Position numbers and translations under genes: made by a program. From the IMG/VR virus record IMGVR_UViG_3300009788_000090, positions 49,028-113,027 of that record: DNA of 64,000 bases; one strand, given 5' to 3'. The notes beneath the pieces were generated by a model, which saw only the letters and a list, made by a program, of their open reading frames with translations, did not search any database and was not told the DNA's origin. This document shows, one piece after another, positions 35,025-44,389 of this stretch. This DNA comes from a virus. How positions within the stretch are numbered: the stretch's first letter is position 1; the number at the start of each line of letters is the position of its first letter.

Positions 35025-35370
35025 TAAACAACCTCACTTCAACTCCAGCTTTCTCGGCTTTGGCTATCATGTCCTTAGTGCCTTTGCTCTTCTCAATGTT
35101 CTCGTGAAAAGCTAACACTAAATCTGGATAGCCCTGTGTTAACATCTTGGAGTTTCTAACTGGGCCAGCTCCCAGGCGATACCTAGTCCAATTGGCAGGA
35201 TAAGGCTCTATGTCGAAACCTAACTTGCTGCCAACATCTCTAGCAATCAAATCAGCGCCTTGAGCTTCACCTTCAATTATCGTGGTGGTTTTCATATCGA
35301 ACTTGCTTAATTCTCGCATAATGGCGCTTCTACTAGTCCACCATCTGCTACCGCATACTAAAATTCTCAC
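35017..35370 (-). CDS. SLOG/YspA-like (DUF2493) nucleotide-binding protein
   Basis: 117 residues. LVCGSRWWTSR, IIEGEAQGADLIA and AGPVRNSKMLT are the Rossmann-like SLOG motifs. SLOG domains bind nucleotides or nucleotide-derived signals, including in phage-defence sensors. Could process or sense such ligands (inference). Confidence 0.85.
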   Translation of the reverse strand: MRILVCGSRWWTSRSAIMRELSKFDMKTTTIIEGEAQGADLIARDVGSKLGFDIEPYPANWTRYRLGAGPVRNSKMLTQGYPDLVLAFHENIEKSKGTKDMIAKAEKAGVEVRLFSD

Positions 35371-35453
35371 TCAGCATCACCTGAGGCGAGAGTGAATGTG
35401 ATATTTACTGCTGCTGCTATCATTATAAGTACAAAGACTACGATTACTACCAT
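35367..35453 (-). CDS. 28-residue membrane peptide
   Basis: ATG 35453, ATGA overlap into the SLOG gene. One hydrophobic helix (VVIVVFVLIMIAAAV). First short gene after the leader region of the 35.6 kb promoter. Confidence 0.5.
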   Translation of the reverse strand: MVVIVVFVLIMIAAAVNITFTLASGDAE

Positions 35454-35461
35454 TATAATAC

Positions 35462-35551
35462 TCTCCGTAGAACGTCTAGCTTCCACACAGGGAGGGCGCA
35501 GTGGCATACTGCGTTAATCCTCGTGTTTAGTCTAGCCGCTCTTCGCAGAGC
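35462..35551 (-). repeat. Divergent copy of the intergenic hairpin element (R1)
   Basis: On the - strand, GAGCGGCTAG pairs with CTAGACGTTC (9 of 10), followed by TCTACGGAGAG in place of TCTAAGGAAAGCC. It also contains CGCAGT-ATGCC-ACTGCG and GCTCT-TCGC-AGAGC hairpins. It occupies the leader of the operon downstream of the 35.6 kb promoter. Confidence 0.5.
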
Positions 35552-35598
35552 CTCTCTCCTCAAATTATATACTATTCTGTTAATTTCTTAGCTCCCTT

Positions 35599-35627
35599 AT
35601 TATAGCATAACCGTAAAACGCAAGCAA
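35599..35627 (-). promoter_or_regulatory. Sigma-A-like leftward promoter
   Basis: On the - strand TTGCTT (35627-35622), 17 bp, TATAAT (35604-35599). Upstream lies GCTTGCTTGGTTAAG followed by GGTCA, related to the block above the promoters at 23.85 and 63.06 kb. Drives the SLOG/SNF2/KGG genes. Confidence 0.8.
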
Positions 35628-35678
35628 CCCCCGTGACCAGGCACTTAACCAAGCAAGCGGAAAGCCGCCAAGAGCACT

Positions 35679-35861
35679 CTATTCTCTGTCGTCTCCATCT
35701 TCAATTTCATTTTCGACTACGTGATTAATATCGAATGTATCTCCCACATAATTAGGGAACTCTAAGTCAGCAGCTTTGTCCCTAGCTAGCTCTTCACTCT
35801 CAGCAAATATATGTATGGTTAAAGATACTTCCATTTCGTATCGCTTCACCTCTCTACCCAT
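35679..35861 (-). CDS. 60-residue acidic protein
   Basis: ATG 35861 chosen: AGGAGGTG lies about eight bases upstream; the longer frame overlaps hairpin R2. Starts MGREVKRYEMEVSLTIHIFA and ends very acidic. Unknown function. Confidence 0.65.
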   Translation of the reverse strand: MGREVKRYEMEVSLTIHIFAESEELARDKAADLEFPNYVGDTFDINHVVENEIEDGDDRE

Positions 35862-35887
35862 GCAGGCAACACCTCCTTTCTGGAGCA

Positions 35888-35958
35888 TTAGGCTCTCCTT
35901 AGAGCCGGTAAGTACCACAACTTTGCGATGGGGCATTACCGGCTCTAACAAAGTCTAA
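35888..35958 (-). repeat. Intergenic hairpin element R2
   Basis: Perfect 13-bp stem TTAGAGCCGGTAA / TTACCGGCTCTAA on the - strand, flanked by AGACTTTG and GGAGAGCC. Begins at the TAG stop of the upstream gene and precedes the AGGAGGTG of the next. Confidence 0.85.
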
Positions 35959-36137
35959 TCTTTCATGTACCCGAACTCAAGATCATCTGGTTTTTCTCCA
36001 AGCTCCTTTTCGATCTTGTCAACGTGAGCTTGAGCTTTCGGTGGTATTCCAAAACCTCCAACAATGTCTTTGCCAGTACCATCCCATCTTTTATCTTTTA
36101 TGCTTCTTACCCACCAACTGCCCATTTTCATGCTCAC
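35955..36137 (-). CDS. Protein of unknown function
   Basis: 60 residues from GTG 36137 (GGAGG nine bases upstream; ATG 36131 is the alternative). SIKDKRWDGTGKDIVGGFGI is distinctive. Its stop codon is part of hairpin R2. Confidence 0.6.
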   Translation of the reverse strand: MSMKMGSWWVRSIKDKRWDGTGKDIVGGFGIPPKAQAHVDKIEKELGEKPDDLEFGYMKD

Positions 36138-36171
36138 TCTCAATCACCTCCTCAATCTTATATTCAAACAC

Positions 36172-36354
36172 TTATTTACCCGCTGTCAACTGAGACAAGT
36201 AATAGTCTTCTTCGCATATCAAACACTCAGCAAAGTATCCAGGTTTCACTGTGCTGTCCTCATGTGTTCTGAGACGTACTGGATGCCCAGACGGACAATA
36301 CAGCTTCTCCACTGGTCTCCTTTTCCCTCTCCCCATAATTTGTTCGTAGCTCAT
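36172..36354 (-). CDS. 60-residue Zn-ribbon protein
   Basis: CPSGHPVRLR and CLICEEDYY give the zinc ligands; basic start GRGKRRPVEK. ATGA coupled to the upstream gene. Confidence 0.65.
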   Translation of the reverse strand: MSYEQIMGRGKRRPVEKLYCPSGHPVRLRTHEDSTVKPGYFAECLICEEDYYLSQLTAGK

Positions 36355-36569
36355 GTTTGCATCTCCTTAAAATTAGCAACTTCTCCAGCGTTTGCAAATC
36401 GTTCAACATCAAAGCCAGAAATGCTATGGTTGGCTCCATCCGCATCTTCGATGAATAGTCCTCGACCCACAGTAAAACTAAAAGACCCGAAACCATTTAC
36501 TGCGAGAACCGTTCTCCCATGTACTATCACGTGCTTGCCCATGAGGTCAGCATCTAATGAATTAGCCAC
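36351..36569 (-). CDS. Protein of unknown function
   Basis: 72 residues from GTG 36569 with GGAGG eight bases upstream. Beta-rich (KHVIVHGRTVLAVNGFGSFS). Confidence 0.65.
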   Translation of the reverse strand: MANSLDADLMGKHVIVHGRTVLAVNGFGSFSFTVGRGLFIEDADGANHSISGFDVERFANAGEVANFKEMQT

Positions 36570-36584
36570 GTTATTTCACCTCCT

Positions 36585-36884
36585 TCACTGTGATGTTGCA
36601 AAGTCTCTCAAAAACAGTTGATTTGATGCTGCTAACAACTCCCGTTTGCCCACAAGGTATAGAGTCTTTGGTCTTGGGTCTCCGGGAGTGCGTAAAAAGT
36701 ACTGAAACTCTTTATCTGTAGTACAGATAACAGCTGCTGTGAATGTTGGATTTTCTACCAGTATCACTGGAAACATACCATTAGGAACTTCATCCCAAGG
36801 TATATCACCAGAGTCTACCTTTTGGCCTTCACGCTCCAAAAAGTCCTCTTTTTCTTCAGTTTCTGGGTCAACATAATATCCCAT
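36585..36884 (-). CDS. Protein of unknown function
   Basis: 99 residues from ATG 36884, eight bases after GGAGG; the GTG at 36899 lies inside that site. Acidic N-terminus (DPETEEKEDFLEREGQ), then strands. Confidence 0.65.
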   Translation of the reverse strand: MGYYVDPETEEKEDFLEREGQKVDSGDIPWDEVPNGMFPVILVENPTFTAAVICTTDKEFQYFLRTPGDPRPKTLYLVGKRELLAASNQLFLRDFATSQ

Positions 36885-36902
36885 TTGTCGTGCCTCCACA
36901 TC

Positions 36903-36976
36903 TTAGGCTTTCCTTAGAACGCCTAGCGTAAATGAGAGGGGAACTCTACACCACTAGGCGCTCTAACAAAGTCTAA
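36903..36976 (-). repeat. Intergenic hairpin element R3
   Basis: AGAGCGCCTAG pairs with CTAGGCGTTCT (one G-T wobble). Flanks TTAGACTTTGTT and AAGGAAAGCCTAA as in the other copies; upstream stop codon is the TAG in TTAGACTTTG. Confidence 0.85.
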
Positions 36977-37296
36977 TAGTTCACTTGAGCTGTGGTTGGG
37001 TCAACTGTCCACTCTGGGACATCACTGCCCTTGAGAGTAGAGAACCCTTTATTGAACCACAACGCACCTCGTAGGATTGATTGGTCGGGACAATGGTTCC
37101 TATCAAATATGCGAAACATACCGAAAATCTCTTCATTGGTCTTTGGGTTTATCGTTGGATAACCCTCAATAGATTTAATGTCATCCCAATCAGGGTATAC
37201 CATCTTGTACAAAGCTAGTACAATATCTGATTGGTTTTCACTTGTCCTAAAAAGAGCACGTACCTCTTCTTGGTCTAACTTTATAAAATCCATCAT
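36973..37296 (-). CDS. Protein of unknown function
   Basis: 107 residues from ATG 37296 in the motif GGAGGTGAACAGAATG. Helical start (DFIKLDQEEVRALFRTSENQ), YPTINPKTNEEIFG in the middle. Confidence 0.65.
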   Translation of the reverse strand: MMDFIKLDQEEVRALFRTSENQSDIVLALYKMVYPDWDDIKSIEGYPTINPKTNEEIFGMFRIFDRNHCPDQSILRGALWFNKGFSTLKGSDVPEWTVDPTTAQVNY

Positions 37297-37314
37297 TCTG
37301 TTCACCTCCTTGTA

Positions 37315-37428
37315 TTAGGCTCTCCTTAGAACGCCTGGTGGATACCGCAGGGATTCAAACCCTACTCTCCCACACCTAAGTAATCCCTAGTTGACATCCT
37401 CTCCACTAGGCGCTCTAACAAAGTCTAA
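37315..37428 (-). repeat. Intergenic hairpin element R4 (long loop, T-arm-like insert)
   Basis: GAGCGCCTAG pairs with a CCAGGCGTTC partner, same flanks. The 75-base loop contains a T-arm-like hairpin (TAGGG-TTTGAAT-CCCTG) and GGTATCCACCA, but no full cloverleaf can be drawn. Confidence 0.8.
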
Positions 37429-37611
37429 TTAAATTAAAGTTATCTCGACCTTTTCGATTACATTTTGCTTGAAGTAATCTGTGTAGTCAAGCTCAACGTA
37501 AGCTAAGTGTAGGGCTTTTTGTTCGTTCTCAGCCTCCACTTCTTCATTATCTATTGAGCTACCATAATAGACTAGTACTTGATATTTTTTGAGTTGTGAT
37601 TCAAATGCCAT
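37429..37611 (-). CDS. Protein of unknown function
   Basis: 60 residues from ATG 37611 (GAGGTGAGCAGAATG). Strands and acidic helix (NEEVEAENEQKALHLAYVEL). Confidence 0.65.
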   Translation of the reverse strand: MAFESQLKKYQVLVYYGSSIDNEEVEAENEQKALHLAYVELDYTDYFKQNVIEKVEITLI

Positions 37612-37629
37612 TCTGCTCACCTCTTTCCA

Positions 37630-37911
37630 TTAGTTTACCATTTCTTTTGGTATCCTCTGCATGACTAGGAGTTCAAACTCCACATATGTTGTGTGGACAG
37701 ACTTAGCCATACCTTGATGGCCAATAATCCTTAGAGTTATCTCCAATTCTTTGAGACAAGTAATCATCACCAATGCTGCCTCGGCTTCATACTTCTCAAG
37801 TTCCAGAGGCATTTCTGCACAGATATCTGCTGTTTTTTGTACAATATGTTCAGCAAATCCCAGTACGTCCATGCCCCCATCTTCTCTTATGAACTCTTTG
37901 GGTGGAAACAT
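37630..37911 (-). CDS. Helical protein of unknown function
   Basis: 93 residues from ATG 37911 (GGAGGTGAACAAGATG). Helical throughout (LGFAEHIVQKTADICAEMPL). Confidence 0.65.
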   Translation of the reverse strand: MFPPKEFIREDGGMDVLGFAEHIVQKTADICAEMPLELEKYEAEAALVMITCLKELEITLRIIGHQGMAKSVHTTYVEFELLVMQRIPKEMVN

Positions 37912-37927
37912 CTTGTTCACCTCCCTC

Positions 37928-38185
37928 TCAACTTGTCCTTATTGTGTGTTCCCATTTCTCTAAGTAATCCAACTCGGCATTAGTCAAGAAACTAAGAGCT
38001 TTTCTATGCTCATTGTAGCCATCCACAAAAGCCCTTCTTATTGCAGAGCTTTGGTCTTCTTCTCCCAACACTTTATATCTCATAATAGTGCTGAATGTTT
38101 GGCTCTCTTTTCTTATCTTAGCAGTGTGCAGAATATCTTTAGATGTTGGTACGCGCACACCTAATCCATGTCTTCTTCTACTCAT
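37928..38185 (-). CDS. Basic protein of unknown function
   Basis: 85 residues. Basic start MSRRRHGLGVRVP. One-base overlap with the upstream stop (TAATG). Confidence 0.6.
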   Translation of the reverse strand: MSRRRHGLGVRVPTSKDILHTAKIRKESQTFSTIMRYKVLGEEDQSSAIRRAFVDGYNEHRKALSFLTNAELDYLEKWEHTIRTS

Positions 38186-38379
38186 TAGTTTAATCCTTTT
38201 CTATCAAAGATTAGTGCCATATTTACCATAAGGTCAGTATCGAAAGCAACTGTTTTTGTCTCATCACATCTATGACACGCGATAGTGACGGTAACATCTT
38301 CTGTTGATGTTACTACATCTGCCGAACTCACATACCACACACACTTATGCTCTGTACTTGCTAGTTCATCATCTTCCAC
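38185..38379 (-). CDS. Small Cys-containing protein
   Basis: 64 residues with KCVWYVSSADVVTSTEDVTV and CHRCDETK, a single CxxC. Beta-rich. Confidence 0.6.
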   Translation of the reverse strand: MEDDELASTEHKCVWYVSSADVVTSTEDVTVTIACHRCDETKTVAFDTDLMVNMALIFDRKGLN

Positions 38380-38398
38380 TGTACCCCTCCCTTATTTA

Positions 38399-38469
38399 TA
38401 GGCTTTCCTTAGAGCGCCTAGTGACCGATAGCCCATCGTCGCTGTCACTAGACACTCTAACAAAGTCTG
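38399..38469 (-). repeat. Intergenic hairpin element R5
   Basis: AGAGTGTCTAGTGAC pairs with GTCACTAGGCGCTCT, extended stem with wobble pairs. Flanks CAGACTTTGTT and AAGGAAAGCC. Confidence 0.85.
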
Positions 38470-38802
38470 TTATCTACGGTCTTGCCTCGTAACGAAGTTC
38501 TCTTCAGCTCCTTTTCTGTCGTCATGTCTGAAGTAATTACCGCTAGTAGTGATGAGTTTGCCGTCGTTCCTACAAACCCATGTGGCATACCTCTCACCTT
38601 TAGTACCAGTCTCAGGCAGATAGCAAAGGACAACTATCTCGTCGCCAAGCCCTTTGAGAGCGATGTCCAGTAAAACTCGCGATGGAGAACTGTTGCTTTT
38701 GTTCATTCTCGCGTCGAGTTCGTACATGTGTGTGCGCCAATCTTTCTCAAAGAGAATCCTTGGTGCAATATTATGTACTATGTTTGTTTCATGTTCTTGC
38801 AT
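38470..38802 (-). CDS. Protein of unknown function
   Basis: 110 residues from ATG 38802 (GGTGGTGATAAAGATG). Strand EIVVLCYLPETGTKGERYAT; C-terminal polar. Confidence 0.65.
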   Translation of the reverse strand: MQEHETNIVHNIAPRILFEKDWRTHMYELDARMNKSNSSPSRVLLDIALKGLGDEIVVLCYLPETGTKGERYATWVCRNDGKLITTSGNYFRHDDRKGAEENFVTRQDRR

Positions 38803-38832
38803 CTTTATCACCACCTTCCAAGTGAAGTTTAT

Positions 38833-39135
38833 TCATAGCCTTGTTACATCTCTCCACGATAACCAAGCTTTTCGTTGAGCGTCGGTTTCGGGTGGACATT
38901 CCAGAGCTTCAGCGACAAGAGCCCTTCGGAATACGGTCAGTAACTCAGACAAAAACAACTGGAAACTAGAGTCCTCATATCTTCTATTTAAGAGTATTAC
39001 TTTATTTTCACTGGTTAGCCCAGAAGTAGCTTTCTCTAGATTCTCCAGTACCCTTGCTCTACAAGGACATATATCAAGACCTGCTTTTAGGTTATCCGCT
39101 ACCGGAGTCCCACAGTACATACATACCAATGCCAT
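38833..39135 (-). CDS. Zn-binding protein of unknown function
   Basis: 100 residues from ATG 39135 (GGAGGTGAACAAGATG). MALVCMYCGTPV and DICPCRARV at the N-terminus supply four cysteines; long helices follow. Confidence 0.65.
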   Translation of the reverse strand: MALVCMYCGTPVADNLKAGLDICPCRARVLENLEKATSGLTSENKVILLNRRYEDSSFQLFLSELLTVFRRALVAEALECPPETDAQRKAWLSWRDVTRL

Positions 39136-39154
39136 CTTGTTCACCTCCATTATA

Positions 39155-39219
39155 TTAGGCTTTCCTTAGAGCAGATAGAGTCCTCCGAATCAAACCCTAT
39201 CTACTCTAACAAAGTCTAA
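39155..39219 (-). repeat. Intergenic hairpin element R6
   Basis: AGAGTAGATAG pairs with CTATCTGCTCT (one wobble), a stem sequence different from other copies but with identical flanks TTAGACTTTGTT and AAGGAAAGCCTAA. Confidence 0.85.
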
Positions 39220-39380
39220 ATGTGCAATGTATCTTTTATAAGTTCCGCGTTGAGTCCTACCCAGAGTAACAGGTAGAACCAAGCAAACCCACCGAAACCT
39301 AGGACTATAAGGGACATAGACTTAGGCTCCTTCTCTTGTGCTTCGTGGTCATAAATATCATTCTTTTCTTCCAAGCGCAT
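39216..39380 (-). CDS. 54-residue membrane protein
   Basis: ATG 39380 with AGGAGGTGAAGAGAACA upstream, overlapping the previous gene by 23 bases. Charged N-terminus then one long hydrophobic segment (LIVLGFGGFAWFYLLLWVGL). Confidence 0.6.
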   Translation of the reverse strand: MRLEEKNDIYDHEAQEKEPKSMSLIVLGFGGFAWFYLLLWVGLNAELIKDTLHI

Positions 39381-39624
39381 TGTTCTCTTCACCTCCTACT
39401 GTGTGGTGTTGCCTCAACTCTGCTTCAATTATTATAAAGCCATCATTGATGTCAACGTTACCTTTCTTACATCGTTCTACCATCTCGTCTACGTTGAAAT
39501 GTAGAGCAACATGGGCAACATTTTCTACTGCCGATTCAACACTGTCTCCCGCCCGCAATGCAACATCTCGTCGCATAACAATATCTTGCATTGCCCTCCT
39601 ACCAACAGCAAATCTAATTTTCAT
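39358..39624 (-). CDS. Protein of unknown function
   Basis: 88 residues, ATG 39624 with GGAGGTGAGGA upstream. Basic start MKIRFAVGRRAMQ; helical. Confidence 0.65.
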   Translation of the reverse strand: MKIRFAVGRRAMQDIVMRRDVALRAGDSVESAVENVAHVALHFNVDEMVERCKKGNVDINDGFIIIEAELRQHHTVGGEENNALGRKE

Positions 39625-39643
39625 TCCTCACCTCCCATCGTGT

Positions 39644-39709
39644 ATAGGCTTTCCCTAGAGCGCCCAGACTGTCCGGCGAAATTCACCTGGGCGCTCAAGC
39701 AAAGTCTAA
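39644..39709 (-). repeat. Intergenic hairpin element R7
   Basis: Perfect stem GAGCGCCCAG / CTGGGCGCTC with flanks TTAGACTTTGCTT and TAGGGAAAGCC. Confidence 0.85.
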
Positions 39710-39831
39710 CTCTCTAAAATACCTGGTTCATCTGTTGGAAACCAAGGCCCAATTGAACCACATTCTTTACATTTCCCAGTTATGGGATGGATAAACCCAC
39801 CACACGTACACTGGTTTTCTTCATCCGGCAT
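39706..39831 (-). CDS. 41-residue Zn-ribbon protein
   Basis: ATG 39831. CTCGGFIHPITGKCKECG, two CxC/CxxC knuckles. Its TAG stop is the first part of hairpin R7. Confidence 0.65.
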   Translation of the reverse strand: MPDEENQCTCGGFIHPITGKCKECGSIGPWFPTDEPGILES

Positions 39832-39847
39832 TTTCAATACCTCCCAT

Positions 39848-40555
39848 CTAGCTTTCTAAGGCTTTGCCCCTAGCATTGTTAGCATCAGCATGGCTCCAGT
39901 CCCTACCAGCCTCAGAGCCGCTTTCATGTGCCTCTCCGCTTAACCTAGCCTGTGACTTCTGAGCAGAAACTAGTCTAAGCTCAATTGCTTTGTCGGTCAC
40001 ATTTTTCGGAGTAGCCAGCACCAATTCCCAAGAGTTAGCAGCTTTCTGTTCCTCGAACTTTTGGTTCAAACCGCTTGAGAATCCCCACATAAAGGACTTC
40101 TTCAGTTTAGATGGAGAGTTTGACAACAATGGGGAACTATTAACTCTTAGGTTGTGTAAGTAGCGGTCGGCTAAATGCTCCATTGACTTGACCGCAGCCT
40201 TGTAAACCATCAAACAAAGCTCAATATCTTCCTTGTTACCTATCAAACGTGCTTGAACCTCTTTGGTATGCTTATTTCTTATCGAGTATTCCATGCACCT
40301 GAAGTTACTAGATATGACAGCCATCAAGGAGAGATATAAGTTACTACGTTTTCCCGATGTAGTGTCATATATCTCGTCAAGAGCCGCTAAGGACTGTTCA
40401 GTTTCAGTGTGACGCTCGAATTCCTCAACTGTCAGCCCTATCCCTTTCAGCATGGTTTGTGCTTTGAGTAATGCTGCTTCAGCTTCACCAACAAAGTCAG
40501 TGCCATACGATAAAGCAAGTATCTTCTTTACTTTATCTTGTACTTCTATATCCAT
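39848..40555 (-). CDS. DUF2786 protein
   Basis: 235 residues from ATG 40555. KVKKILALSYGTDFVGEAEA then LKAQTMLKGIGLTVEEFE is the DUF2786 signature. The rest is helical with a basic middle (SPSKLKKSFMWGFSSGL). Often found near SprT-like or phage replication genes; function unknown. Confidence 0.85.
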   Translation of the reverse strand: MDIEVQDKVKKILALSYGTDFVGEAEAALLKAQTMLKGIGLTVEEFERHTETEQSLAALDEIYDTTSGKRSNLYLSLMAVISSNFRCMEYSIRNKHTKEVQARLIGNKEDIELCLMVYKAAVKSMEHLADRYLHNLRVNSSPLLSNSPSKLKKSFMWGFSSGLNQKFEEQKAANSWELVLATPKNVTDKAIELRLVSAQKSQARLSGEAHESGSEAGRDWSHADANNARGKALES

Positions 40556-40576
40556 TTCATTCACCACCTTTCAACT

Positions 40577-40655
40577 GTTAGGCTTTCCCTAGAACGCTCA
40601 AGCCTGCTTTCGTGCTATACTACCGGCAATAGCCTGAGCGTTCAAGCAAAGTCTA
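40577..40655 (-). repeat. Intergenic hairpin element R8
   Basis: Perfect stem GAACGCTCA / TGAGCGTTC, flanks TAGACTTTGCTT and TAGGGAAAGCCTAA. A long loop of about 35 bases. Confidence 0.85.
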
Positions 40656-41126
40656 CTTCAACATCCCTTGTAACCGTTCAATTTCAGCTTGTATAGCCTC
40701 GTTGTCACCCAAGCCCATCATCTCTCTACCAATAGGACTGAGCTTTTCACTTGTCCAGAAGTTAGGGTCATCAACACAACCCTTCAAATCTCCCGCAGCC
40801 AAGCTAAGAACTTCCAAGGCTCGTTGAATGTTAACAATAACCATCCCGAGGCTACCATTCAAACTACCAGCCTCAAGTTCAGAGCAAGTCATGTTAAGTG
40901 TGTGTAATAACATCATGGAAGACTCAATCACACAAATAGCAGACTCTAGCTTGTCGTCATCGTCAAAGGGAGTCATCAACTTGTAAGCGTCACCCTTCTC
41001 CGTTCTGTCTGAAAGCTCGTAGCCATTGTAAAAAGCTTCGTAACATTTATTTGGGGCATTAGTATCGGCTGTAACTGTTCCTCTGGTCACACATATCTTA
41101 AACTTTTTGCAAGTTTCACATTTCAT
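40653..41126 (-). CDS. Protein with N-terminal Cys cluster
   Basis: 157 residues from ATG 41126 (GGAGGTGACAAACATG). MKCETCKKFKICVTRG, then a helical body. No family recognised. Confidence 0.65.
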   Translation of the reverse strand: MKCETCKKFKICVTRGTVTADTNAPNKCYEAFYNGYELSDRTEKGDAYKLMTPFDDDDKLESAICVIESSMMLLHTLNMTCSELEAGSLNGSLGMVIVNIQRALEVLSLAAGDLKGCVDDPNFWTSEKLSPIGREMMGLGDNEAIQAEIERLQGMLK

Positions 41127-41156
41127 GTTTGTCACCTCCTTTCAATAAGATAATGT

Positions 41157-41387
41157 TCATACCTCAGACCAGTTACACAAGCCGTCGATATAAGCTACTA
41201 GCTCTTGATACTGGCCTTGGTTGTCAAACATATAGCACCAGGGAGTCTCGTCACCAGTGACAGTGATGCTGCCAGAACCAAAACCACTATGTACCTCAAT
41301 ACGTCTGTAACCATTGTCTGAGATATATGTCCTAGCTGTAGCTGGATAACCTGCTTTGTCACCTGGATGCTTTAATTGTAATGACAT
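41157..41387 (-). CDS. Protein of unknown function
   Basis: 76 residues from ATG 41387 (GGAGGTGAACAGAATG). Beta-rich (EVHSGFGSGSITVTGDETPW). Confidence 0.65.
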   Translation of the reverse strand: MSLQLKHPGDKAGYPATARTYISDNGYRRIEVHSGFGSGSITVTGDETPWCYMFDNQGQYQELVAYIDGLCNWSEV

Positions 41388-41392
41388 TCTGT

Positions 41393-41509
41393 TCACCTCC
41401 CTTCAATAACGTAAGAGAGCTTTAATATAATATTTAAGGAAGCACCGACCAAGAACATTGTCAGCCCAACCTTACCAACTATACCAAGCTCACTCCATAG
41501 TTGCTTCAT
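41393..41509 (-). CDS. 38-residue membrane peptide
   Basis: ATG 41509. Hydrophobic IVGKVGLTMFLVGASLNIIL. Its last codons contain the GGGAGG site of the next gene. Confidence 0.5.
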   Translation of the reverse strand: MKQLWSELGIVGKVGLTMFLVGASLNIILKLSYVIEGR

Positions 41510-41513
41510 TCTT

Positions 41514-41750
41514 CTAATACCTCCCAAGGGCGGGGGAATGAATAACAAACCCCGACCATTCTTTCCTATTCCTCGAAGGATACTCTATAGACATAAGAAT
41601 ACCCATAGAGAGTAATAGCCATATAGGACAGCAACAACATATACTGCCACTAATATCAAGTTTCTTACAATTATAACAAGCACCTCTTATATATTTACCT
41701 GTCTTGACCAGGCTTTCCTTAGAATACCCGTCTATAGGATACTCTAACAA
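41514..41750 (-). CDS. Doubtful Cys-rich frame overlapping hairpin R9
   Basis: 78 codons from TTG. The first third lies inside hairpin R9, so the real start is unclear and no ATG with a ribosome site follows. CYNCKKLDISGSICCCCPIW looks like a real Cys-rich segment before a hydrophobic LLLSMGILM. Possibly a degraded gene. Confidence 0.35.
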   Translation of the reverse strand: MLEYPIDGYSKESLVKTGKYIRGACYNCKKLDISGSICCCCPIWLLLSMGILMSIEYPSRNRKEWSGFVIHSPALGRY

Positions 41751-41756
41751 AGTCTG
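41709..41756 (-). repeat. Intergenic hairpin element R9 (shortest copy)
   Basis: GAGTATCC pairs with GGGTATTC through two wobbles, 10-base loop, flanks CAGACTTTGTTA and TAAGGAAAGCC. Confidence 0.8.
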
Positions 41757-41762
41757 TCTCCG

Positions 41763-41999
41763 TCACTTGAGGACTTCACGAGTGAGCACTTCTATTAGTT
41801 CCAAGTCACCTACTAACTCGTCTTGTGGGTAAGGCTCTTGGTTGGCTCTGTCCTTCATGAAAATGACCATCTCTTGAATGGTTGTATTAGCTCCCAGCTG
41901 CTTGTACCAGGGCGTTTGATAGTCAAATTCTTTATCAGTGCTTTCAATAATGTCACTATTGTAACCAAACCGTTCTGTTACTCCGTCTGCTGTAAACAT
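41763..41999 (-). CDS. Protein of unknown function
   Basis: 78 residues from ATG 41999 (GGAGGTGGAACAAATG). Acidic, helical C-terminal half (DELVGDLELIEVLTREVLK). Confidence 0.65.
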   Translation of the reverse strand: MFTADGVTERFGYNSDIIESTDKEFDYQTPWYKQLGANTTIQEMVIFMKDRANQEPYPQDELVGDLELIEVLTREVLK

Positions 42000-42057
42000 T
42001 TGTTCCACCTCCTATCTTCCCAGTTCAGATACATAGTCCTCGGCCTACGTACTAGCA

Positions 42058-42384
42058 TCAAAACACGCAATTGCTCTTACTATAGAATTGGGCCGGACAG
42101 CACAAAACTCCACTCCGCTTGAATAGCTTTATTAGTTCGCCACCATCCAGTTCGTACATGGCTCTAAAGTTCTTCAATACTCGAATGAAGTCAAGTTCGT
42201 TATCCGGGTCAACCAGTGTTTGATAGTCAAAGCTCCCTAGGTAAACCTCACGAGGCTCTAACGGATATTCCGTAATGGAATTGATGATCTCACCAGTAGA
42301 GGTCTCCCACCGTCTTTCCGTAGCTCTCCAGTTTCGAATCTCCCTTGGTGCTTTATCTAGTCGCAATACAACACGTTCTGCCAT
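42058..42384 (-). CDS. Protein of unknown function
   Basis: 108 residues from ATG 42384 (GGAGGGATACAAATG). Basic first half (LRLDKAPREIRNWRATERRW), then EVYLGSFDYQTLVDPDNELD. Confidence 0.65.
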   Translation of the reverse strand: MAERVVLRLDKAPREIRNWRATERRWETSTGEIINSITEYPLEPREVYLGSFDYQTLVDPDNELDFIRVLKNFRAMYELDGGELIKLFKRSGVLCCPAQFYSKSNCVF

Positions 42385-42407
42385 TTGTATCCCTCCCATT
42401 GAGTTAT

Positions 42408-42457
42408 TGGGCTTTCCCTGGAACCCCTAGTCTCCCAGAGGTTCTAGCAAAGTCTAA
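42408..42457 (-). repeat. Intergenic hairpin element R10
   Basis: GAACCTCTGG pairs with the CTAGGGGTTC partner (wobble included). Flanks TTAGACTTTGCTA and CAGGGAAAGCCC. Confidence 0.8.
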
Positions 42458-42606
42458 TTGTTGTCACATCCATCTTTGCACACATTCATCTTAGCTGAAA
42501 GCGCATTAACGGATATTTGTGTCTCCTTGAGCTGTCCGTCTTTGTTGTGTGTATAGCCGCATAGTTCGCACAGTCTATCCCCGAGCCTTCCTGTAGATAC
42601 TATCAT
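42454..42606 (-). CDS. 50-residue Cys-containing protein
   Basis: ATG 42606, first gene after the promoter at 42.67 kb, with GGGAGGGAG upstream. CELCGYTHN and NVCKDGCD form a likely zinc site. Stop TAG is part of R10. Confidence 0.6.
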   Translation of the reverse strand: MIVSTGRLGDRLCELCGYTHNKDGQLKETQISVNALSAKMNVCKDGCDNN

Positions 42607-42655: not shown

Positions 42656-42685
42656 ATTATACCCTATACAGGCGCACAATACCAA
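42656..42685 (-). promoter_or_regulatory. Leftward promoter with operator-like palindrome
   Basis: On the - strand TTGGTA (42685-42680), 18 bp, TATAAT (42661-42656). CCTGTATAGG (42672-42663) lies in the spacer beside the -10 and matches a perfect palindrome at the same place in the promoter at 43.57 kb. CCGCTTGCTTG lies just upstream of the -35. Confidence 0.75.
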
Positions 42686-43966: not shown

Positions 43967-44389
43967 TCACAATTCATTCTTGGCTTGAGTTATCTGCGAC
44001 CTAATACGTTTCCAAATACTAGGATGAATGTAGCCCCAATAATCTTCATACAAATATCGGTACTTGTATTTTGGTCGTTTGTCCCTAACCTTTAGTACCC
44101 TATCGCGAGTTATGTCAGTTGGCACATAAACCTTACTGCCACCGCAAGAACATCGAACTTCATCACCCAGCCCACCACCAATGTCCATATCAAAAGGCAC
44201 GTTAGGGTTGGGCAAATCAAGGTGGTAATATCCTCTTCCTCCACAAGTATGGCAGGGGATTTTAACCACCGAAATACCATCTATCTTTACAATAGGTCTT
44301 TTGGCCGTAAAGTTGATTTCATACTTTGTAACACCCAATTGCCTTAACTCTTTAATTATTGGGTACGTGGGGTCGTATTTAGTTGCCAT
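43967..44389 (-). CDS. DnaJ-type Zn-finger protein
   Basis: 140 residues. CHTCGGRGYY and CSCGGSK resemble half of a DnaJ zinc domain; the C-terminus is Arg/Lys/Tyr-rich (RDKRPKYKYRYLYEDY). Confidence 0.7.
   Translation of the reverse strand: MATKYDPTYPIIKELRQLGVTKYEINFTAKRPIVKIDGISVVKIPCHTCGGRGYYHLDLPNPNVPFDMDIGGGLGDEVRCSCGGSKVYVPTDITRDRVLKVRDKRPKYKYRYLYEDYWGYIHPSIWKRIRSQITQAKNEL

What the first reader, a model, noticed from the sequence alone, without database searches (positions are those of the whole stretch)
35462..42457. About ten intergenic hairpins with fixed flanks and covarying stems
Between 35.5 and 42.5 kb each copy starts at or near the stop codon of one gene with (T)TAGACTTTGyTwGA, forms a stem whose sequence differs from copy to copy while pairing is kept (for example GAGCGCCCAG/CTGGGCGCTC against AGAGTAGATAG/CTATCTGCTCT), and ends with TCTArGGAAAGCC before the next ribosome site. 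Compensatory changes argue for selection on RNA structure or a two-fold DNA site. They do not look like terminators (no U-run) or promoters. They could be processing sites, attenuators bound by a phage protein, or recombination sites for swapping genes.
Basis: seen in the sequence. Interest (0 to 1): 0.85.

Follow-up and report, generated by a model that had tools for sequence, protein, structure and literature searches.

The report
Phage mRNA hairpins separating gene modules
A little-known bacterial virus places ten related but individually different RNA hairpins between groups of small genes in one operon, most likely as signals read in the messenger RNA (for example cutting or protection points), and no matching RNA family is described.

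Summary
Nine near-consensus hairpins and one divergent copy lie on the minus strand, all in the same orientation as the small-gene operon at 35.4-42.6 kb, and nowhere else in the 113-kb phage contig. The nine near-consensus copies start between 3 nt inside and 6 nt after an upstream stop codon, and in six the element's own TAG is the stop; eight end 6-12 nt before a ribosome site, one 24 nt before. The base is conserved: UUAG-A-CUUU-G-YUWGA / UCWAR-GG-ARAG-C-CUAA. The upper stem varies with pairing kept: 12 of 23 pairs show two-sided changes, covariation 0.44 against 0.21 shuffled, 0/500 shuffles as high. Wobble pairs sit on the mRNA strand (10 G.U to 1 A.C) and sense RNA folds better than antisense in 9 of 10 copies. 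This points to selection on the transcript rather than on a two-fold DNA site. There is no U-run, attC box or Rfam match, no recombinase was seen, and scans of IMG/VR and GTDB gave only chance hits. Best reading: a cis-acting intercistronic mRNA element, probably a processing or stability boundary (T7- or SP82-like), with the conserved base as the recognition part. Cleavage and the binding protein are inferred. The family is new; the kind is known.

The parts
42410..42456 (-). hairpin copy 1 (TAG = stop codon of ORF 42606-42454)
41711..41756 (-). hairpin copy 2 (6 nt after TGA; outer pair UA changed to CG)
40581..40655 (-). hairpin copy 3 (TAG = stop of ORF 41135-40653)
39647..39708 (-). hairpin copy 4 (TAG = stop of ORF 39837-39706)
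39158..39218 (-). hairpin copy 5 (TAG = stop of ORF 39392-39216)
38401..38469 (-). hairpin copy 6 (directly after TAA of ORF 38814-38470)
37318..37427 (-). hairpin copy 7, longest, with an inner structured loop (1 nt after TAA of ORF 37620-37429)
36906..36975 (-). hairpin copy 8 (TAG = stop of ORF 37305-36973)
35891..35957 (-). hairpin copy 9 (TAG = stop of ORF 36143-35955)
35461..35553 (-). divergent tenth copy; lower pairs CUCU/AGAG; its 3' arm GGAGAG could serve as ribosome site of a 28-aa peptide
   Evidence: 3' arm 2 mismatches of 19 to copy 8; fold
42656..42685 (-). sigma-70-like promoter TTGGTA-18-TATAAT at the head of the leftward operon (consensus match only)
35367..42606 (-). leftward cluster of about 20 small genes, nearly all without a recognised family, divided by the hairpins into modules of one to four genes

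Best explanation
Each copy is a cis-acting element of the leftward polycistronic mRNA. Its base, 5' UUAG-A-CUUU-G-YUWGA / UCWAR-GG-ARAG-C-CUAA 3', is an interrupted helix kept in sequence. Above it sits a helix free in sequence but kept in pairing, with a free loop. Shown here: RNA-level selection on the sense strand, placement between a stop codon and the next ribosome site, and division of one gene cluster into modules. Inferred: that the cluster is one transcript, and that the conserved base recruits a host or phage RNA-binding protein or nuclease, most likely a double-strand RNase such as RNase III acting at the interrupted helix. The operon is then cut into short mRNAs whose upstream parts end in a hairpin protected against 3'->5' decay, while the downstream gene starts just upstream of its ribosome site. 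This would be the same logic as the T7 and SP82 early operons.
For: Covariation: 12 of 23 pairs with two-sided changes, 94% of cells paired, 0/500 shuffles as high for both measures, slid structures at 58% or less. Non-Watson-Crick pairs in the upper stems are G.U on the mRNA strand (10 against 1 A.C, one-sided p = 0.006). Sense folds better than antisense in 9 of 10 copies. All ten lie in one orientation relative to the genes. The nine near-consensus copies start from 3 nt inside to 6 nt after a stop codon, and eight of these nine end 6-12 nt before a ribosome site. A total helix of roughly 20-28 bp with internal loops is of the size RNase III cuts (own knowledge). No U-run, and promoter and terminator counts at shuffle level. 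One promoter-like site at the operon head.
Against: No transcript or cleavage data. RNase III does not need a base conserved letter for letter, so another reader is possible. No RNase III family appeared among the phage ORFs scanned, so the enzyme would have to be the host's, and the host is unknown. The paralogous copies share ancestry, so the number of independent compensatory events is smaller than the number of cells counted. One copy folds only slightly better than its shuffles (z -1.8).
Confidence: 0.45

Rival explanations
1. RNA operator: a phage or host RNA-binding protein binds the conserved base and sets translation or elongation of the modules together, without cutting.
For: Letter-for-letter conservation of the base, including the A.C mismatch in all nine copies and the G/GG loop, with free upper stems, is what a sequence-specific binder would leave. 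The hairpins sit next to ribosome sites.
Against: Eight of nine near-consensus hairpins end 6-12 nt before the ribosome site and one 24 nt before, and do not cover it. No candidate binder was recognised in the cluster. Antitermination would need one site, not ten.
Confidence: 0.27
2. Passive hairpins: barriers to 3'->5' exonucleases and insulators against translational coupling between modules, with no specific partner.
For: Placement at stop codons and absence from tightly coupled junctions.
Against: Does not explain why the base sequence is conserved while the upper stem is free.
Confidence: 0.15
3. Mobile or recombination hairpins (attC-like, REP/RAYT-like or MITE-like) that spread between genes.
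For: Copies are paralogues spread without their neighbours: copies 36975, 37427 and 35461 share the stem GAGCGnCTAG. The site at the stop codon resembles gene cassettes.
Against: Selection is on sense RNA; all copies share the genes' orientation; no recombinase or transposase family was listed for the scanned ORFs; no RYYYAAC/GTTRRRY boxes; confined to 7 kb of 113 kb.
Confidence: 0.08
4. Targets of the phage's own Ro60/TROVE protein, as mRNA-borne relatives of its Y RNAs.
For: The same contig encodes a TROVE protein and four Y-like RNAs with conserved arms and variable cores.
Against: The conserved letters of the Y-like RNAs (AGTCAG..TACTTC) are not those of the hairpins.
Confidence: 0.04

Closest known systems
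RNase III processing sites between early genes of coliphage T7 and Bacillus phage SP82 (own knowledge)
   Same: Intercistronic hairpins of about two helical turns with internal loops, near stop codons and ahead of ribosome sites, in an operon that looks host-transcribed
   Different: Here ten copies share a letter-conserved base with free covarying stems; cleavage has not been shown
Short intergenic repeats of actinobacteriophages: ESAS/SAS of clusters K and EF, 17-18 bp inverted repeats of clusters O and EG (PMC7302621)
   Same: About ten copies in short intergenic gaps upstream of start codons in one region of the genome; role unclear
   Different: Cluster EG repeats have a fixed palindrome (GATCAACCNNGGTTGATC), whereas here the stem sequence changes with pairing kept and lengths run from 46 to 110 nt
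Integron attC sites
   Same: Folded element at the stop codon, conserved base, variable inner stem and loop
   Different: No R'/R'' boxes, no integrase found, selection on sense RNA
REP elements with RAYT transposase
   Same: Many imperfect hairpins in gene gaps
   Different: No RAYT found, no fixed tetranucleotide flank, single orientation, one operon only

Membership tests
RNase III intercistronic processing site | cut in the hairpin by RNase III | not testable with these tools
   no transcript data for this uncultivated phage
RNase III intercistronic processing site | near-continuous RNA helix of about 20 bp or more between two neighbouring genes on the same strand | tested here: met
Intrinsic terminator | U-run after the stem | tested here: not met
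   stems are followed by GGAAAGCC; terminator-like sites at shuffle level and none at the copies
Integron attC site | R''/R' boxes RYYYAAC and GTTRRRY | tested here: not met
   read directly in the ten copies; GTTAGAG or GCTTGAG present instead
Integron attC site | tyrosine recombinase in the element | tested here: inconclusive
   no such family listed for the scanned ORFs, but the scan covered mostly ORFs of 120 aa or more, 10 of 35 PHROG families were not shown, and the record is incomplete
REP/RAYT element | RAYT (Y1 transposase) partner | tested here: inconclusive
   same scans and same limits; none listed
REP/RAYT element | conserved tetranucleotide (GTAG type) before the hairpin | tested here: not met
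   flanks are TTAGAC/GCCTAA
Actinobacteriophage cluster EG inverted repeats | fixed consensus of those repeats | tested here: not met
   published EG consensus differs; short intergenic placement is similar
Y RNA | binding by Ro60/Rsr | not testable with these tools
   phage encodes a TROVE protein; conserved letters differ from its Y-like RNAs
Any Rfam family | score above the gathering threshold | tested here: not met

The most novel reading that the evidence does not exclude
A new class of sequence-specific RNA punctuation: a dedicated, unknown RNA-binding protein or nuclease reads the conserved interrupted base, while the upper stem is free to drift so that ten copies in one operon do not recombine with each other.
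Probability: 0.2. Interest if true: 0.7.

Novelty: new variant of a known kind. Interest (0 to 1): 0.5.

Why it matters
One genome holds its own covariation experiment: ten paralogous hairpins with changed stems and kept pairing give strong evidence for an RNA element in a phage without close relatives. Such intergenic repeat families are known in other phages with unclear roles; here the RNA level and the sense strand can be read from sequence alone, and a reporter or RNase III assay would test it directly.

Tried and rejected
Relatives: pattern scans of IMG/VR gave 0 hits and 19 single hits that do not form the structure, and GTDB gave 3 chance hits; helicase and PolA queries of IMG/VR gave no relatives; NAMPT gave one 99.9% identical fragment that does not cover the hairpins and distant contigs without the element. 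Other phages sharing one cluster gene show TTGACA promoter motifs and terminator-like hairpins in their gaps, not this element. Stop-codon readthrough: the frame after the stop closes inside the hairpin in six of nine copies. T4 gene-60-type bypassing: the next gene has its own strong ribosome site and start, and no matching take-off and landing codons were seen by eye. tRNA-like loop of copy 37427: a T-arm-like hairpin only, no tRNA called. Rfam: only sub-threshold chance matches. No structure prediction was run, because no single protein is implicated.

Full report
Origin. The window is bases 49028-113027 of a 113,027-bp IMG/VR virus record. It has no close relative among phage records by DNA; protein queries for a helicase and PolA gave at best about 36% identity, and one 99.9% identical fragment extends past the end of the record. 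The GC content is 39%, the ribosome sites are strong (GGAGGTGA), and one cluster gene has its nearest relatives in Bacillota phages. A Bacillota host is therefore likely but not shown.

Check of the observation. Nine copies match TAGACTTTGYTWGA..TCTARGGARAGCC, three of them with one mismatch in an arm, at 35.9-42.5 kb on the minus strand and none elsewhere in the record. The tenth, at about 35.5 kb, is a true divergent homologue.

Is it more than chance? With the structure written on the alignment of nine copies (long loops trimmed), 94% of cells pair, 12 of 23 pairs have changes on both sides (shuffled mean 6.5) and the covariation score is 0.44 (shuffled mean 0.21, 0/500 as high); sliding the partner by one to three bases leaves 58% or less. 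The structure was written by me on these same sequences and the copies are paralogues, so the counts are not independent events; the slid controls keep relatedness and still separate clearly.

RNA or DNA, and which strand? Non-Watson-Crick positions inside the upper stems are G.U ten times and A.C once when read on the coding strand (one-sided p = 0.006). Some of these are shared by related copies, so the p-value is approximate. Folding energies favour the sense strand in 9 of 10 copies (sum -303 against -267 kcal/mol). The conserved A.C mismatch would be G.U on the other strand, the opposite of what antisense folding would want. All ten copies lie in the direction of the genes. Together these favour selection on the mRNA.

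Position. The nine near-consensus copies start from 3 nt inside to 6 nt after a stop codon, and in six the element's TAG is the stop. Eight of these nine end 6-12 nt before a ribosome site and one 24 nt before. They part about 20 small genes into modules of one to four. Promoter-like and terminator-like sites in the region are at shuffle level, with one promoter-like site at the head of the operon, 42685-42656.

Mechanism. Shown: a sense-strand RNA structure under selection, with a conserved base and a free upper stem, at module borders in one gene cluster. Inferred: the cluster is one operon, and it is cut or protected at these points by a double-strand RNase or another base-specific RNA-binding protein. 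The T7 and SP82 early operons are the model (own knowledge; the papers on those sites are not in the library searched). No RNase III family was found among the ORFs scanned (mostly ORFs of 120 aa or more, and 10 of 35 PHROG families were not displayed), so the enzyme would be the host's.

Known kinds. Actinobacteriophages of clusters K, EF, EG and O carry intergenic repeats whose role is unclear (PMC7302621), but with fixed sequence in cluster EG. Rfam has no match. The terminator reading and the attC-box and REP-tetranucleotide features fail when tested; the absence of a recombinase or RAYT is only as complete as the scans. The element is filed as a new variant of a known kind: intercistronic RNA hairpins of phages.

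Noticed in passing
L010:8264-8685 (G000:C1:28264-28685), upstream of the TROVE gene G000:C1:28720-30150: Four tandem Y-RNA-like elements with conserved arms (AGTCAG..TACTTC / TTTTC) and pairing basal ends; the third carries a permuted tRNA-like module as in YrlA (own knowledge). The next gene is a Ro60/TROVE protein. Rfam finds none of the four.
   Followed up: partly
L011:1294-1373 (G000:C1:41294-41373): An 80-nt RNA matches only the tRNA-like domain of tmRNA (65.3 bits), with 13 nt in place of the 308-position middle; G3-U70 is kept and the 3' end is ACTA. Possibly a stand-alone tmRNA tRNA-like domain.
   Followed up: partly
L010, L011 and window: About 27 tRNA genes in one phage contig.
   Followed up: no
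a member of alignment A3 (window 35-64 kb, minus strand; perhaps 43967-44389): One protein near the operon matches anti-TRAP (E 1.2e-5); one matches the DnaJ zinc centre and one sigma-70 region 2. Which members matched was not resolved.
   Followed up: no
   Followed up: partly
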